NCBI GenBank assembly: GCA_905221235.1
Contig: CAJNCJ010000009.1
Location: 1-64,000 of the forward strand
Direction of reading: 5' to 3'
From: a bacterium
GTDB taxonomy: Bacteria > Bacillota > Bacilli > Lactobacillales > Streptococcaceae
Length of the DNA: 64,000 nucleotides
Shown: positions 5,166 through 31,120 of the stretch, one piece after another
How positions within the stretch are numbered: position 1 is the stretch's first letter
How the letters are laid out: each line of letters opens with the position of its first letter
Notes under the pieces: model-generated
The model's input: only the letters and a program-made list of their open reading frames with translations
The model's database searches: none
What the model was told of the DNA's origin: nothing
Position numbers and translations under genes: made by a program

Positions 5166-5426
5166 ATGGAACGCAATAATCGTAAAGTTCTTGTTGGACG
5201 TGTTGTATCTGACAAAATGGACAAGACAATCACAGTTGTAGTTGAAACAAAACGTAACCACCCAGTCTATGGTAAACGTATTAACTACTCTAAAAAATAC
5301 AAAGCTCATGATGAAAACAATGTTGCCAAAGAAGGCGATATCGTACGTATCATGGAAACTCGTCCGCTTTCAGCTACAAAACGTTTCCGTCTTGTAGAAG
5401 TTGTTGAAGAAGCGGTCATCATCTAA
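5166..5426 (+). CDS. rpsQ: 30S ribosomal protein S17
   Basis: S17 (86 aa) is an OB-fold protein needed early in 30S assembly. The segments [19 protein letters not shown] and HPVYGKR are typical. GGAAGGAG lies upstream. It is normally the last gene of the S10 operon; here transcription most likely continues into rplN. Confidence 0.98.
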
Positions 5427-5451
5427 TCAAACCTGAAAGGAGAAAACTGAA

Positions 5452-5820
5452 ATGATTCAAACAGAAACTCGTTTGAAAGTCGCAGACAACAGCGGTGCTC
5501 GCGAAATCTTGACTATCAAAGTTCTTGGTGGTTCAGGACGTAAATTTGCAAACATCGGTGATGTTATCGTGGCATCTGTAAAACAAGCTACTCCTGGTGG
5601 TGCGGTTAAAAAAGGTGACGTTGTTAAAGCAGTTATCGTTCGTACTAAATCAGGTGCTCGTCGTGCTGATGGTTCATACATCAAATTTGACGAAAACGCA
5701 GCAGTTATCATCCGTGAAGACAAAACTCCTCGCGGAACACGTATCTTTGGCCCAGTTGCACGTGAATTGCGTGAAGGTGGCTTCATGAAGATCGTGTCAC
5801 TTGCTCCAGAAGTACTTTAA
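5452..5820 (+). CDS. rplN: 50S ribosomal protein L14
   Basis: L14 (122 aa) is the beta-barrel protein at the subunit interface that contacts L19 and 16S rRNA. It starts [19 protein letters not shown], as in most bacteria. It is the first gene of the spc operon. AAAGGAG lies 11 bases before the ATG. Confidence 0.98.
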
Positions 5821-5840
5821 TTTTTAGAAACAAACTAGTC

Positions 5841-5873
5841 CCCTGGATTTACCTCCAGGGTGCCCTTATGGGC
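5841..5873 (+). other. Double hairpin between rplN and rplX
   Basis: CCCTGGA (5841-5847) pairs with TCCAGGG (5854-5860), and GCCC/GGGC (5862-5873) forms a second small stem directly after it. Both lie in the 78-base gap before rplX, upstream of its ribosome binding site. There is no T-run, so I do not call it a terminator. It may be a translational control or mRNA processing element. Confidence 0.45.
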
Positions 5874-5898
5874 GTAAGAAAAATCAAGGAGAAACCTA

Positions 5899-6204
5899 AT
5901 GTTTGTAAAAAAAGGCGACAAAGTTCGCGTAATCGCTGGTAAAGATAAGGGAACAGAAGCTGTTGTCCTTACTGCCCTTCCAAAAGTAAACAAAGTTATC
6001 GTTGAAGGTGTTAACATCGTTAAGAAACACCAACGTCCAACTAACGAGCTTCCTCAAGGTGGTATCATCGAGAAAGAAGCAGCTATCCACGTATCAAACG
6101 TTCAAGTTTTGGACAAAAATGGTGTAGCTGGTCGTGTTGGTTACAAATTTGTAGACGGTAAAAAAGTTCGCTACAACAAAAAATCAGGCGAAGTGCTTGA
6201 TTAA
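5899..6204 (+). CDS. rplX: 50S ribosomal protein L24
   Basis: L24 (101 aa) is an assembly initiator of the large subunit. The N-terminal KOW motif is seen in [19 protein letters not shown]. The gene follows the 78-base structured gap after rplN and has AAGGAG upstream. Normal length. Confidence 0.98.
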
Positions 6205-18132: not shown

Positions 18133-18284
18133 ATTAAATAAAGACCTCCTAATATTATTTGAAACAGATAACACTGATTTAGTTTGAATTTGATTTTCAT
18201 CTAATATCTTTATTTAATAGAACTCCTAAACTTTTTCATAATAATCTCCTGCAAAAGTCGCCTGTATGGGTGGCTTTTGTTTTA
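18133..18284 (+). ncRNA. CiaR-dependent small RNA (csRNA/ccn family), long form
   Basis: About 150 nt from the predicted start to an intrinsic terminator (AGTCGCC, TGTAT, GGTGGCT, T-run). It shares AAGACCTCCTAA near the 5' end and ACTCCTAAACTTTTTCAT plus ATAATCTCC before the terminator with the RNAs at 27858 and 31026. The CTCCT and TCAT parts are complementary to a Shine-Dalgarno and an AUG, as expected for RNAs that block translation starts. It is about 55 nt longer than the other two. CiaRH controls competence and stress functions in pneumococci. Confidence 0.8.
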
Positions 18285-27857: not shown

Positions 27858-27952
27858 ATTAGATAAAGACCTCCTAACTTTATTTAATGAAATCCTAAAA
27901 CTTTTTTTCATCATAATCTCCCTTAACTCCACCCAATCAGGTGGAGTTTTTT
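27858..27952 (+). ncRNA. CiaR-dependent small RNA (csRNA/ccn family)
   Basis: About 95 nt. It has the shared 5' block AAGACCTCCTAA, the shared 3' block with TCCTAAAACTTTTTTTCAT and AATCTCC, and an intrinsic terminator ACTCCACC, CAATCA, GGTGGAGT, T-run (27926-27952). The terminator sequence is repeated at each boundary of the toxin-antitoxin array that follows. Confidence 0.82.
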
Positions 27953-28077
27953 GGCTCTATTTCAGGCTTTTGGGGACTATTCTAAAAATCATTTTTCGAT
28001 AACTTTCTCCCAATCTTATAAACTTTATTGGACAGATTATAAAGTTGAAGAAGCTAAATGGGTGAGGTTGTAAAGTT

Positions 28078-28106
28078 TTGACAAATTTTGTGAACTATGG
28101 GATAAT
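28078..28106 (+). promoter_or_regulatory. Promoter of antitoxin RNA, module 1
   Basis: TTGACA (28078-28083), 17 bases, GATAAT (28101-28106) with an upstream TG. It is a near-consensus promoter, conserved in all three modules (TTGACA also at 28513 and 29099), as expected for an abundant antitoxin RNA. Confidence 0.85.
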
Positions 28107-28112
28107 GGAGAG

Positions 28113-28188
28113 GAATTAAGGATTAGTTCTATATCATGGACTAGAAAAGACCCCAAGCTAACTTCCACATTAAGCTTGGGGTCTTTTT
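28113..28188 (+). ncRNA. Antitoxin RNA (RNA II-like), module 1
   Basis: About 76 nt from the promoter at 28078 to the terminator stem GACCCCAAGCT/AGCTTGGGGTC with T-run (28145-28188). It contains AAGGATTAGTTC, the same sequence found in the plus strand across the toxin start region (28269-28280), so the RNA can pair with the toxin mRNA there and through the shared terminator. This is the layout of the pAD1 par module, where RNA II blocks Fst translation. Confidence 0.8.
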
Positions 28189-28193
28189 TGACA

Positions 28194-28286
28194 CTATCTA
28201 TCTTTGTTTAGCCATTTATCGACTAAGCGAAGAACAACACCGACCACAATTGGTCCGATGATAGTTTTAAGGATTAGTTCCATCAT
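28194..28286 (-). CDS. Fst/Ldr-family type I toxin, copy 1
   Basis: A 30-codon gene encoding MMELILKTIIGPIVVG, then VVLRLVDKWLNKDR: a short hydrophobic helix, the conserved internal proline and a charged tail, as in the Fst toxins that act at the membrane. GGAGG lies 11 bases upstream of the first ATG; a second ATG follows at once. The minus-strand promoter has TATAAT at 28334-28339 with an upstream TG. The toxin mRNA would run to the bidirectional terminator, converging with the antitoxin RNA. Confidence 0.88.
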   Translation of the reverse strand: MMELILKTIIGPIVVGVVLRLVDKWLNKDR

Positions 28287-28547
28287 GGGCTATCTCACCT
28301 CCTTTCGTAGGCGGTGTAGTAGTGCCGTATAATATTATACCACATGAATGTTAAACTCGGGAGGCACCCAATCAGGTGGAGTTTTTTGGCTCTATTTCAG
28401 GATTTTGGGGAGTATTTTAAACATCATTTTCCGATAACTTTTACTTAATCTTATAAACTTTATTGGATAGATTCTAAAGTTGGAGAAGCTGAGTAGATTA
28501 GGATATAAATCTTTGACAAATTTTGTGAACTATGGGATAATAAAAGG

Positions 28548-28624
28548 GAATTAAGTATTGTGTCTATATCATAGGCTAGAAAAGACCCCAAGCTCACGAC
28601 CAAATAAGCTTGGGGTCTTTTTGA
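28548..28624 (+). ncRNA. Antitoxin RNA (RNA II-like), module 2
   Basis: About 77 nt, from promoter TTGACA (28513-28518), 17 bases, GATAAT (28536-28541) to the stem GACCCCAAGCT/AGCTTGGGGTC (28580-28622). The antisense repeat reads TAAGTATTGTGTC, matching the plus strand over its own toxin start (TAAGTATTGTATC) and differing from modules 1 and 3. Confidence 0.8.
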
Positions 28625-28626
28625 CA

Positions 28627-28719
28627 CTATTTGTCCTTGTTTAGCCATTTATCAACTAATCGAAGAACGACACCGACCACAATTGGTCCGATGATAGTTT
28701 TAAGTATTGTATCCATCAT
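28627..28719 (-). CDS. Fst/Ldr-family type I toxin, copy 2
   Basis: 30 codons, starting MMDTILKTIIGPIVVG and ending LVDKWLNKDK. It differs from copy 1 at residues 3-4 (DT for EL) and at the last residue. Binding site GGAGG and a minus-strand TATAAT (28767-28772) as in copy 1. Reading frame, proline and charged tail are intact, so the toxin is probably functional. Confidence 0.87.
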   Translation of the reverse strand: MMDTILKTIIGPIVVGVVLRLVDKWLNKDK

Positions 28720-29133
28720 GGGCTAATTCACCTCCTCTCGCAGGCGGTGTAGAAGTGCCGTAGAATATTATACCACATAAGTGTTAAACTCGGGAGTCGC
28801 CTAATCAAGTGAAGTTTTTTGGCTCTATTTCAGGCTTTTTGGGACTATTCTAAAAATAGTTTTCCGATAATTTCCGGTCTTTTTCGGATTTTGGTCGGGG
28901 AATTGGCGGGGACTTTTTTAGGAAATATGACTAAGAAATAGGTTTGCTGTTACTTCAGCTACTTCAAACTCAATTTGATTGTAAGTGACTGTTAATTGAA
29001 GGGTTAGAACTACTTTAATAATGTTCTTGGTTGTCGAGGAGTGAGTCATTATATTGTTGTACAGCAGTTAAAGCTTGAAAAGCCGAGAATGTAAACCTTT
29101 GACAAAATTTGTGAACTGTGGGATAATAAAAAG

Positions 29134-29209
29134 GAATTGAGTACTAGTTCTATATCATAGGCTAGAAAAGACCCCAAGCTCACGACCAAATAAGCTTGGG
29201 GTCTTTTTT
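29134..29209 (+). ncRNA. Antitoxin RNA (RNA II-like), module 3
   Basis: About 76 nt, from promoter TTGACA (29099-29104), 17 bases, GATAAT (29122-29127) to the stem at 29166-29208. Its antisense repeat is TGAGTACTAGTTC, matching TGAGTACTAATTC over the start of its own toxin gene. Confidence 0.8.
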
Positions 29210-29213
29210 GACA

Positions 29214-29306
29214 CTATTTGTCCTTGTTTAGCCATTTATCGACTAATCGAAGAACGACACCGACCACAATTGGTCCGATGATAGTTTTGAGTACTAATTC
29301 CATCAT
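29214..29306 (-). CDS. Fst/Ldr-family type I toxin, copy 3
   Basis: 30 codons, starting MMELVLKTIIGPIVVG and ending LVDKWLNKDK. Same binding site as the other copies and a minus-strand TATAAT at 29354-29359. It converges with the third antitoxin RNA. The ruvB promoter lies just behind its own promoter region. Confidence 0.88.
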   Translation of the reverse strand: MMELVLKTIIGPIVVGVVLRLVDKWLNKDK

Positions 29307-29404
29307 GGGCTATCTCACCTCCTTTCGTAGGCGGTGTAGCAGTGCCGTATAATATTATACCACATAAGTGCTAAACTCAGGAGTCACCCAATCAGGTGGC
29401 TTTT

Positions 29405-29439: not shown

Positions 29440-30438
29440 ATGAGTAGAATTTTAGATAATGAGATAATGGGGGATGAGGAGTTAGTAGAACGCACACTCC
29501 GTCCTCAGTACTTACGTGAATATATTGGGCAGGACAAGGTCAAGGATCAGCTCCAAATCTTTATCGATGCTGCCAAAATGCGGGATGAAGCGCTGGATCA
29601 TGTGCTCTTATTTGGGCCTCCAGGCTTGGGAAAAACGACCATGGCTTTTGTTATTGCCAACGAACTAGGTGTCAATCTCAAGCAGACTTCGGGTCCAGTC
29701 ATTGAAAAAGCAGGTGATTTGGTAGCGATTCTGAATGACTTAGAACCTGGGGACGTCCTCTTTATAGACGAGATTCATCGTTTGCCAATGTCAGTGGAAG
29801 AGGTGCTTTATAGTGCCATGGAGGACTTTTACATTGATATCATGATTGGGGCTGGTGAAGGCAGTCGCAGTGTTCATTTGGAGTTGCCACCTTTTACCTT
29901 GATTGGTGCGACGACTCGGGCTGGTATGCTCTCAAATCCGCTACGGGCACGTTTTGGGATTACAGGTCATATGGAATACTATGCCCATGCTGATTTGACA
30001 GAAATTGTCGAGCGGACGGCAGATATTTTTGAGATGGAAATTACTCATGAGGCAGCATCTGAGTTAGCCCTACGTAGCCGTGGGACCCCTCGTATTGCCA
30101 ATCGTCTCCTCAAGCGCGTGCGCGATTTTGCCCAGATTATGGGGGATGGGGTTATCGATGATCTTATTACCGATAAGGCTTTGACCATGCTGGATGTTGA
30201 CCATGAAGGCTTGGACTATGTGGACCAAAAAATCCTTCGCACCATGATTGAGATGTATGGTGGCGGTCCTGTCGGTCTAGGAACTCTTTCTGTGAATATC
30301 GCTGAAGAGCGTGAGACGGTAGAAGATATGTATGAGCCTTACTTGATTCAAAAAGGTTTTATCATGCGGACACGGTCTGGACGGGTTGCAACGGCTAAGG
30401 CCTACGAACATTTAGGGTATGAATACAATGAAAAATGA
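29440..30438 (+). CDS. ruvB: Holliday junction branch migration helicase RuvB
   Basis: RuvB (332 aa) is the hexameric AAA+ motor that drives branch migration with RuvA. Walker [10 protein letters not shown] (residues 59-67), Walker [10 protein letters not shown], sensor 1 in [11 protein letters not shown] and a C-terminal winged helix are all present. The start [15 protein letters not shown] fits the streptococcal family. It overlaps the next gene by 11 or 20 bases, depending on its start. Confidence 0.97.
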
Positions 30439-31019: not shown

Positions 31020-31025
31020 AAGTCC

Positions 31026-31120
31026 ATAAGTTAAGAAGACCTTAACTTAAACTCCTAAAACTTTTTCATAATAATCTCCCTATAAAAAATAGAGTCGCCC
31101 AATCAGGCGGCTTATTTTTT
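31026..31120 (+). ncRNA. CiaR-dependent small RNA (csRNA/ccn family)
   Basis: About 95 nt. It shares ACTCCTAAAACTTTTTCAT and ATAATCTCC with the other two RNAs and ends with the terminator AGTCGCC, CAATCA, GGCGGCT and a T-run (31093-31120). Its 5' part (AAGTTAAGAAGACC) differs most, so its targets may differ. Confidence 0.82.

What the first reader, a model, noticed from the sequence alone, without database searches (positions are those of the whole stretch)
28078..29306. Three tandem Fst-type toxin-antitoxin modules whose antitoxin repeats covary with their own toxin
Seen: three minus-strand 30-codon Fst-like genes, each facing a near-consensus plus-strand promoter and a shared stem terminator. 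In each module the antitoxin RNA carries a repeat of the toxin start region, and the repeats differ between modules in step: TAAGGATTAGTTC, TAAGTATTGTGTC/TAAGTATTGTATC and TGAGTACTAGTTC/TGAGTACTAATTC. Known: in the pAD1 par module RNA II pairs with direct repeats and the terminator of the toxin mRNA. Inference: the array has diverged so that each antitoxin silences mainly its own toxin, which would allow the copies to persist without cross-protection.
Basis: partly seen in the sequence, partly recalled or inferred. Interest (0 to 1): 0.85.

Follow-up and report, generated by a model that had tools for sequence, protein, structure and literature searches.

The report
Three self-specific toxin-antitoxin modules beside ruvB
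Next to the ruvB gene of a streptococcus lie three small poison genes in a row, each with its own RNA off-switch that is predicted to fit mainly that poison; mismatched versions in related bacteria were seen only where the poison gene looks damaged, and the row sits in an old virus landing site.

Summary
In detail: three minus-strand Fst genes, each with a convergent 11/12 promoter, a two-way terminator and a repeat of the toxin start in the antitoxin, in three discrete types A, B, C. They are par/Fst type I toxin-antitoxin modules at the locus of pneumococcal Srf-07/spd_sr24.

Specificity is supported twice. Predicted antitoxin-arm pairing is -16.4 to -18.8 kcal/mol for cognates, -2.8 to -8.5 otherwise. 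In 68 typeable modules (window, 41 unnamed Streptococcus genomes, one named contig) all 46 with intact toxin promoter, Shine-Dalgarno and ORF are matched; the 10 hybrids all carry a lesion there (strict rule set after inspection, p 2e-6; two hybrids pass a laxer rule, p 5e-4).

Beyond the finding: each module follows a copy of a known prophage attachment site, an integrase remnant precedes module C, and six phages plus seven virus contigs carry the same type-A module.

Against: B and C share a terminator loop, so whole-RNA pairing does not separate them; two arrays keep two intact B modules; nothing was measured. New variant of a known kind; boldest reading: prophage addiction scars with incompatibility-like types.

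The parts
27858..27951 (+). csRNA (Cia-dependent small RNA) upstream of the array
   Evidence: Rfam RF02379, 96.3 bits, cut-off 57
27924..28007 (+). att copy 1 (attachment-site sequence of prophage group PPH035), before module A
   Evidence: 80 of 84 identical to the att printed in PMC8637289
28078..28106 (+). antitoxin promoter A
   Evidence: TTGACA-17-GATAAT, 11/12
28113..28189 (+). antitoxin RNA A (predicted 77 nt; start assumed 7 nt after the -10)
   Evidence: D39V srf-07 spans 76 nt
28117..28129 (+). DRa copy in antitoxin A, TAAGGATTAGTTC
28149..28189 (.). two-way terminator A (stem 28149-28183)
   Evidence: read; folded
28194..28286 (-). Fst toxin A, MMELILKTIIGPIVVGVVLRLVDKWLNKDR
   Evidence: PF13955, NF033608
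28268..28280 (+). DRa copy at toxin A start, TAAGGATTAGTTC (identical to the antitoxin copy)
28334..28342 (-). toxin A extended -10 promoter TGGTATAAT
   Evidence: read; intact by the rule
28365..28442 (+). att copy 2, before module B
   Evidence: 69 of 78 identical
28513..28541 (+). antitoxin promoter B
   Evidence: 11/12
28548..28622 (+). antitoxin RNA B (predicted 75 nt)
28552..28564 (+). DRa copy in antitoxin B, TAAGTATTGTGTC
28584..28622 (.). two-way terminator B (stem 28584-28617)
   Evidence: read; folded
28627..28719 (-). Fst toxin B, MMDTILKTIIGPIVVGVVLRLVDKWLNKDK
28701..28713 (+). DRa copy at toxin B start, TAAGTATTGTATC (one G.U wobble to the antitoxin)
28767..28775 (-). toxin B extended -10 promoter TGGTATAAT
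   Evidence: read; intact by the rule
28800..28918 (+). att copy 3, before module C
   Evidence: 109 of 119 identical; 28800-28984 is 87% identical over 185 nt to the att-integrase junction of provirus L135
28924..29055 (-). remnant of a phage integrase C-terminus
   Evidence: tblastn with the L135 integrase, residues 327-381, 44% identity, E 1e-4; DNA match
29099..29127 (+). antitoxin promoter C
   Evidence: 11/12
29134..29209 (+). antitoxin RNA C (predicted 76 nt)
29138..29150 (+). DRa copy in antitoxin C, TGAGTACTAGTTC
29170..29209 (.). two-way terminator C (stem 29170-29203)
   Evidence: read; folded
29214..29306 (-). Fst toxin C, MMELVLKTIIGPIVVGVVLRLVDKWLNKDK
29288..29300 (+). DRa copy at toxin C start, TGAGTACTAATTC (one G.U wobble)
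29354..29362 (-). toxin C extended -10 promoter TGGTATAAT
   Evidence: read; intact by the rule
29387..29399 (+). further copy of the att hairpin core (CCCAATCAGGTGG), before ruvB
29440..30438 (+). ruvB (332 aa), downstream neighbour
   Evidence: ORF; the name rests on recall and on the D39 gene order in PMC9812572

Best explanation
Three par/Fst-type type I toxin-antitoxin modules in tandem. In each, a 30-residue membrane toxin is made from a minus-strand mRNA whose Shine-Dalgarno (SD) sits in a 5' hairpin; a ~76-nt antitoxin RNA from the facing promoter shares the terminator, meets the mRNA there (inferred from pAD1), then pairs through DRa and DRb over the start codon and blocks translation. 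Terminator and DRb are largely common property; the 13-nt DRa is the type key, so A, B and C antitoxins mainly silence their own toxin. Selection keeps DRa matched only while the toxin can be expressed. Shown here: anatomy, types, predicted energies, no hybrids among modules with an intact toxin side. Inferred: expression in this strain, toxicity, silencing, and what selects for the match.
For: Family hits; convergent promoters; 5' hairpin over the SD, and the arm covering AUGAUG in cognate pairs; nine arm pairings, the cognate 7.9 to 14.8 kcal/mol better than the best non-cognate for the same toxin; intact modules 46 matched, 0 hybrid; lesioned 12 matched, 10 hybrid, Fisher 2.2e-6; ruvB-proximal modules only, intact/lesioned 25/6 for matched v 0/10 for hybrids, p 7e-6; single-module loci 15/4 v 0/6, p 0.0012; distinct upstream haplotypes 25/10 v 0/9, p 1.3e-4. 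Among the 22 lesioned modules 12 are matched, 8.2 expected at random, P 0.056. Hybrids need 9 changes on a ruvB tree. Antitoxin promoter present in 9 of 10 hybrids and 58 of 58 matched modules. In D39 both RNAs of the single module at this locus are reported.
Against: The intact/lesioned rule was set after seeing the sequences; with TATAAT in place of TGNTATAAT two hybrids (L046, L059) count as intact (p 5e-4). Single criteria give p 3e-7 to 0.1. A rule-free edit distance separates hybrids only weakly (toxin side p 0.02, antitoxin side p 0.05), so hybrids are somewhat decayed on both sides. B and C share terminator loops and pair equally as whole RNAs. C antitoxin on A toxin (-8.5) is better than the best of 60 shuffled arms (-6.0). 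L062 and L070 hold two intact B modules. Most genomes are drafts, and related genomes are not independent.
Confidence: 0.74

Rival explanations
1. The two repeats within a module are kept alike by gene conversion or by common descent of whole modules, not by selection for pairing; hybrids arise by chance recombination, and lesions are unrelated decay.
For: Repeat units are 79-91% alike and in direct repeat, so exchange is easy; all 10 hybrids are ruvB-proximal, as simple deletions would give; hybrids are slightly more diverged on the antitoxin side too.
Against: The fixed G/A difference between the two DRa copies persists in all 29 intact B and C modules, which conversion would erase; terminators, which lie between the two repeats, have been exchanged in some intact modules while DRa stays matched (clearest cases 2 of 17 A and 2 of 29 B/C); the hybrid-lesion link holds within ruvB-proximal and within single-module loci.
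Confidence: 0.15
2. Antitoxins cross-silence; the DRa types reflect drift, and the terminator loop plus DRb suffice for repression of any toxin.
For: B and C have identical terminator loops, DRb is nearly common, whole-RNA cofold gives B/C as strong as B/B; same-type pairs coexist in two arrays.
Against: It predicts intact hybrids; none under the strict rule, two of ten under the lax one. Five of six non-cognate arm pairings lie within the range of 60 shuffled arms. The similar S. aureus pairs SprA1/SprA2 are reported to have no cross-regulation (PMC6393315).
Confidence: 0.1
3. The modules are degenerate, non-functional prophage debris.
For: Attachment-site copies and integrase remnants lie beside the modules; 22 of 68 typed modules in the sample fail the strict rule and five more lack a readable toxin start.
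Against: All three window modules pass the strict rule; DRa is nearly invariant among intact modules; RNAs of the D39 module are detected and change with conditions.
Confidence: 0.06

Closest known systems
par of plasmid pAD1 (RNA I/Fst and RNA II)
   Same: Convergent RNAs, shared terminator, repeats DRa/DRb at the toxin start, 5' hairpin over the SD (review PMC7472228, passages seen)
   Different: Chromosomal, three tandem copies with three repeat types; ATG start (pAD1 Fst: GUG, from the legend)
Srf-07/spd_sr24 (SPV_2132) of S. pneumoniae D39, upstream of ruvB
   Same: Same locus and family; both RNAs detected (PMC9812572 passages; PMC6212727 table and text passages)
   Different: Single module; types, hybrids and arrays at this locus are not mentioned in the passages seen
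SprA1/SprA1AS and SprA2/SprA2AS of S. aureus (toxins PepA1, PepA2; Fst/Ldr superfamily)
   Same: Two similar pairs in one species with no cross-regulation in vitro or in vivo (PMC6393315 abstract and passages)
   Different: Not described there as a tandem array; measured, whereas here specificity is predicted
zorO-orzO / zorP-orzP of E. coli O157:H7
   Same: Duplicated type I pairs; a 3-nt region decides whether the antitoxin silences zorO (PMC3919570 passages)
   Different: Antitoxins divergent from the toxin genes; another toxin family
Ibs/Sib and tandem Ldr/Rdl of E. coli
   Same: Several homologous type I copies, three Ldr in tandem; Sib recognition domains (PMC4147584 passages)
   Different: Antitoxin overlap differs; no natural hybrids in the passages seen
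Fst-Sm/srSm of S. mutans
   Same: Streptococcal Fst with ~200-nt mRNA, ~70-nt antitoxin, direct repeats over the start codon, toxicity and neutralisation reported (PMC3543317 abstract and passages)
   Different: Described as one locus

Membership tests
par/Fst type I toxin-antitoxin | Toxin of the Fst family | tested here: met
   PF13955 and NF033608 above curated cut-offs for all three
par/Fst type I toxin-antitoxin | Convergent promoters for toxin mRNA and antitoxin RNA | tested here: met
   Antitoxin promoters 11/12; toxin TGGTATAAT on the minus strand in all three; consensus only, no transcript data for this strain
par/Fst type I toxin-antitoxin | Shared two-way terminator | tested here: met
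   Stem with T-runs on both strands read and folded; the scan did not list it, probably because it allows loops of at most 8
par/Fst type I toxin-antitoxin | Direct repeats linking antitoxin to the toxin start | tested here: met
par/Fst type I toxin-antitoxin | 5' hairpin that hides the Shine-Dalgarno | tested here: met
   Predicted in A, B and C
par/Fst type I toxin-antitoxin | YUNR U-turn in the toxin terminator loop | tested here: inconclusive
   By eye in the loops: present in B and C (UUUG), in A only at the stem edge; the review says not all homologs have one
par/Fst type I toxin-antitoxin | Toxin toxic, antitoxin neutralises it | not testable with these tools
   The passages seen call the pneumococcal systems uncharacterised
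PPH010/PPH035 prophage attachment locus | att sequence | tested here: met
   Three copies in the window
PPH010/PPH035 prophage attachment locus | Integrase of that group beside att | tested here: inconclusive
   A C-terminal remnant matching the 382-aa integrase of L135; that L135 belongs to those groups rests on its site, att and integrase length, not on a named record

The most novel reading that the evidence does not exclude
The array is a row of scars of successive prophages that landed at the csRNA attachment site: each decayed but left its Fst module because losing it kills. DRa types then act like incompatibility groups: a resident type-A antitoxin would neutralise the type-A addiction module of an arriving phage, while B and C are types that neither phage nor neighbour can cover, so modules add up rather than replace one another.
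Probability: 0.3. Interest if true: 0.78.

Novelty: new variant of a known kind. Interest (0 to 1): 0.62.

Why it matters
It offers natural genetic evidence, independent of laboratory assays, that an antisense antitoxin must match its own toxin, and three keys of 13 nt on one scaffold with which to measure how much mismatch silencing tolerates. It also ties chromosomal Fst modules, of whose function little is known (PMC7472228 passage), to temperate-phage modules with the same key and to a known prophage landing site, which makes an anti-addiction role testable.

Tried and rejected
Rejected or weak: (1) The antitoxin as a known Rfam RNA: SpF11 came up only below its cut-off. (2) A rule-free test (edit distance) was weak and is reported as such. 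(3) Whole-RNA cofold cannot hold terminator and repeat pairing at once (crossing topology), so arm-only pairing was used as well. Five B stretches also hold a word like the toxin core, but on the other strand or thousands of bases away. (5) Plasmids: one weak S. suis record. (6) Toxin type alone as cause of the hybrid-lesion link: within toxin C it remains (13/7 v 0/7, p 0.006); within A and B numbers are too small (p 0.06, 0.11). Dropped before the count of 68: four type-D modules at another locus (L072-L074, L076), five modules without a readable toxin start (L075, L089, L124-L126), and 30 of the 31 loci because their contig lengths equal those of genomes already held; L097 was kept. L043 and L063, counted among the 68, are not at ruvB; L063 lies beside repressor-like and metalloprotease-like genes (my reading), L043 was judged by its likeness to the phage copies.

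Not found in print: the listings of nine full-text searches showed no study of tandem Fst arrays with typed repeats or of natural hybrids in streptococci; the two founding surveys (Weaver 2009, Fozo 2010) are not held and may touch on it.

Full report
What is there. Between a csRNA gene (27858-27951) and ruvB (29440-30438) the window holds three head-to-tail units, spaced 433-435 and 586-587 nt. Each has a minus-strand 30-codon Fst gene, a plus-strand promoter with 11 of 12 consensus bases, a predicted antitoxin RNA of 75-77 nt and a terminator stem with T-runs on both strands (read, folded). The toxin promoters are extended -10 sites, TGGTATAAT, with no -35 that I could recognise by eye. In D39 a single module at this place, srf-07 (76 nt) with toxin SPV_2132, is annotated (table and text passages of PMC6212727). 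Both its RNAs were seen by RNA-seq, the antitoxin in molar excess; Northern blots were made, but the antitoxin pattern on them did not agree with the RNA-seq (PMC9812572 passages).

The repeats. DRa (13 nt) comes in three forms: A TAAGGATTAGTTC in both places; B TAAGTATTGTGTC in the antitoxin, TAAGTATTGTATC at the toxin; C TGAGTACTAGTTC and TGAGTACTAATTC. The B and C differences are G.U wobbles in the RNA duplex. DRb, next to it, is nearly common to the types. Of the nucleotide differences between the three toxin genes, DRa holds four of ten (A-B), four of nine (A-C) and five of six (B-C); of the eight residue differences summed over the three pairs, six lie in DRa (read from the ORFs).

Nine pairings. 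The 31-nt antitoxin arm against the full toxin mRNA gives net -16.4 (A), -17.7 (B) and -18.8 (C) kcal/mol for cognates and -2.8 to -8.5 for the six non-cognates. Shuffled arms average -1.0 to -3.9, best of 60 -6.0 (A), -13.0 (B), -10.1 (C); five of six non-cognates lie within that range, C antitoxin on A toxin (-8.5) does not. Plain duplexes give -29.6 to -31.8 against -16.1 to -21.4. The terminator loop does not tell B from C: it is identical, and as whole RNAs B and C antitoxins bind both toxins equally well. A differs from B and C on both counts.

Relatives. Of 284 Streptococcus genomes 59 had a match to toxin A at E up to 0.01, 50 an antitoxin motif with up to 3 mismatches and 56 a DNA match. 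In loci L033-L092, L097, L124-L126 and the window 77 antitoxin sites were found. Leaving out four type-D modules at another locus and five without a readable toxin start, 68 modules could be typed on both sides, from 43 loci. Within intact modules the antitoxin DRa is identical within its type in 46 of 46, the toxin DRa in 45 of 46.

Natural hybrids. In 10 of 68 the antitoxin is of one type and the toxin of another: L046 (B/C), L054 (B/C), L059 (A/C), L060 (C/A), L066 (B/C), L067 (A/C), L068 (B/A), L071 (C/B), L078 (B/C), L080 (A/C). I called a toxin side intact if it has TGNTATAAT, GGAGG and a full ORF. Intact: 46 matched, 0 hybrid. Not intact: 12 matched, 10 hybrid (Fisher p 2.2e-6). Hybrid lesions are changed or deleted -10 sites (TCTAAT, TATAAC, TATGAT, deletion, lost TG), lost SD, or an insertion in the ORF. 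The same lesion families contain matched members (TCTAAT in L038, L048; promoter deletion in L045; shortened promoter in L055), as if the toxin fell silent first and the pairing scrambled afterwards. Among the 22 not intact, 12 are matched where 8.2 are expected if antitoxins were dealt at random (P 0.056).

How firm this is. The link holds within ruvB-proximal modules (25/6 v 0/10, p 7e-6), in single-module loci (15/4 v 0/6, p 0.0012) and for distinct upstream haplotypes (25/10 v 0/9, p 1.3e-4). Other rules give p 3e-7 (TGNTATAAT alone), 0.0036 (TATAAT alone), 0.013 (SD alone) and 0.1 (ORF alone); with TATAAT in the full rule two hybrids pass, p 5e-4. The rule was framed after looking. Edit distances from consensus are larger in hybrids on the toxin side (p 0.02) and a little on the antitoxin side (p 0.05), but the antitoxin promoter motif is present in 9 of 10 hybrids and 58 of 58 matched modules. 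On a ruvB tree hybrids need nine changes, five of them forced by well-supported branches; labels are no more clustered than shuffled ones. Three of ten hybrids have the cognate antitoxin elsewhere in the same locus.

Terminator exchange. The terminator lies between the two repeats. In intact matched modules A occurs with three terminator classes, B and C with four each, counting 'other'. Two of these classes differ by one base, so the clear exchanges are few: 2 of 17 A modules have a B/C-like terminator, 2 of 29 B or C modules the A-like one. In those four the repeats are still matched.

Same-type copies. In the 18 multi-module loci there are 16 pairs of intact modules within a locus; 2 are of the same type (B,B in L062 and L070), where 5.9 are expected if types are dealt at random (P 0.023). 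Types tend to differ within an array but need not.

The landing site. PMC8637289 (table and text passages) places attB of prophage group PPH035 between the acetyltransferase gene and the Fst gene of D39, overlapping a csRNA 3' end; its first 21 nt equal attB of PPH010. The window has three copies, one before each module (80/84, 69/78, 109/119 identical), and the hairpin core once more before ruvB. In relatives and the window together 57 of the 68 modules that have ruvB downstream (another set than the 68 typed) have that core, up to 2 mismatches, within 450 nt upstream; the 11 without include the window's own C module, whose core is more diverged. Provirus L135 sits at a csRNA gene: its full 127-nt att overlaps the csRNA 3' end and abuts a 382-aa integrase, and it carries a type-A module 2.6 kb beyond that integrase. 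Window 28800-28984 matches that att-integrase junction at 87% over 185 nt; a reversed control gave only 13-16 nt matches. A protein-level integrase remnant lies at 28924-29055, between modules B and C. Such a remnant (E up to 0.01) is present in 37 of 48 loci, in all 37 antisense to and within 500 nt upstream of an antitoxin. The order att, integrase (minus), Fst (antitoxin plus) is the same in L135 and in the window. L130, whose contig shows phage-like genes (my reading of the translations, no search), then att, then a module with ruvB-locus-type flank, suggests that prophages use this site next to the array.

Phage modules. Six pneumococcal phages (IPP63, SF39, phiARI0468-4, IPP55, IPP65, phiBHN167; ten records, of which six were fetched) and seven IMG/VR contigs (L129, L131-L136) carry a type-A module with a phage-style flank; in all 13 it is matched, with TGGTATAAT, GGAGG and a full ORF. 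No complete B or C module was seen in virus contigs (0 of 120 stretches, scan cut at its limit, and 0 of 27), while the same test found A in eight contigs, one of them (L300) with ruvB-locus flank. In the phage collection B and C queries found 13 records each, ten of them the type-A phages. Six of the 13 also carry a second, different Fst module in tandem, again self-matched. The 13 share few upstream haplotypes and are not independent.

Reading. I take the array as three par/Fst modules with DRa as the specificity key (confidence 0.74). That the modules were brought by prophages and kept because loss kills, and that types act like incompatibility groups against phage-borne modules, is the boldest reading not excluded (0.3). 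An alternative is that phages landed beside pre-existing Fst modules and decayed; the shared order and orientation fit both. Expression, toxicity and silencing in this strain were not tested. The host species is inferred: the nearest held genome shares 41% of sampled 31-mers, and the closest ruvB, 95% over 624 columns, is L042, whose contig length is that of S. mitis DD26.

Noticed in passing
L061, L078, L080 toxin ORFs; L124 (G126): A similar short insertion (about 105 bp in L061 and L078, judged by the distance to ruvB) interrupts the toxin frame in three genomes and seemingly a fourth; from recall it looks like the pneumococcal RUP repeat.
   Followed up: partly
L049:2380-4777 and 5313-6173, L068:2484-10972; L039 and L062 have similar 4.5 kb gaps: Between modules some strains carry accessory genes that read like ABC transporters with a helix-turn-helix regulator (L049) and, in L068, a second transporter and a two-component system. 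Named by eye; L039 and L062 were not read.
   Followed up: partly
L072-L074, L076: A fourth type (D: TGAATAGTAAGTC / TGAATAGTAAATC) at another chromosomal place, again self-matched with a G.U wobble; in L073 the neighbours read like tatC and a sugar ABC transporter (by eye).
   Followed up: partly
all intact B and C modules; exceptions L055, L067, L080: The wobble difference between antitoxin and toxin DRa is kept in all 29 intact B and C modules; the three C modules whose toxin copy lacks it are all lesioned and lie in one group of the ruvB tree.
   Followed up: partly
L089: An antitoxin gene remains where an internal deletion has removed the toxin start: a candidate orphan antitoxin.
   Followed up: no
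L132, L133, L135-L138; L085, L087: Other tandem Fst pairs (type A plus a VEPMVDYIF toxin in phages; VEPMVDYIF plus LELLFTLIL in L085 and L087), each module self-matched.
   Followed up: partly
window 18133-18280 and 31025-31117: Two further csRNA genes in the window, one on each side of the array.
   Followed up: no
L066: A hybrid module that has also lost the antitoxin promoter and whose terminator loop reads inverted.
   Followed up: no
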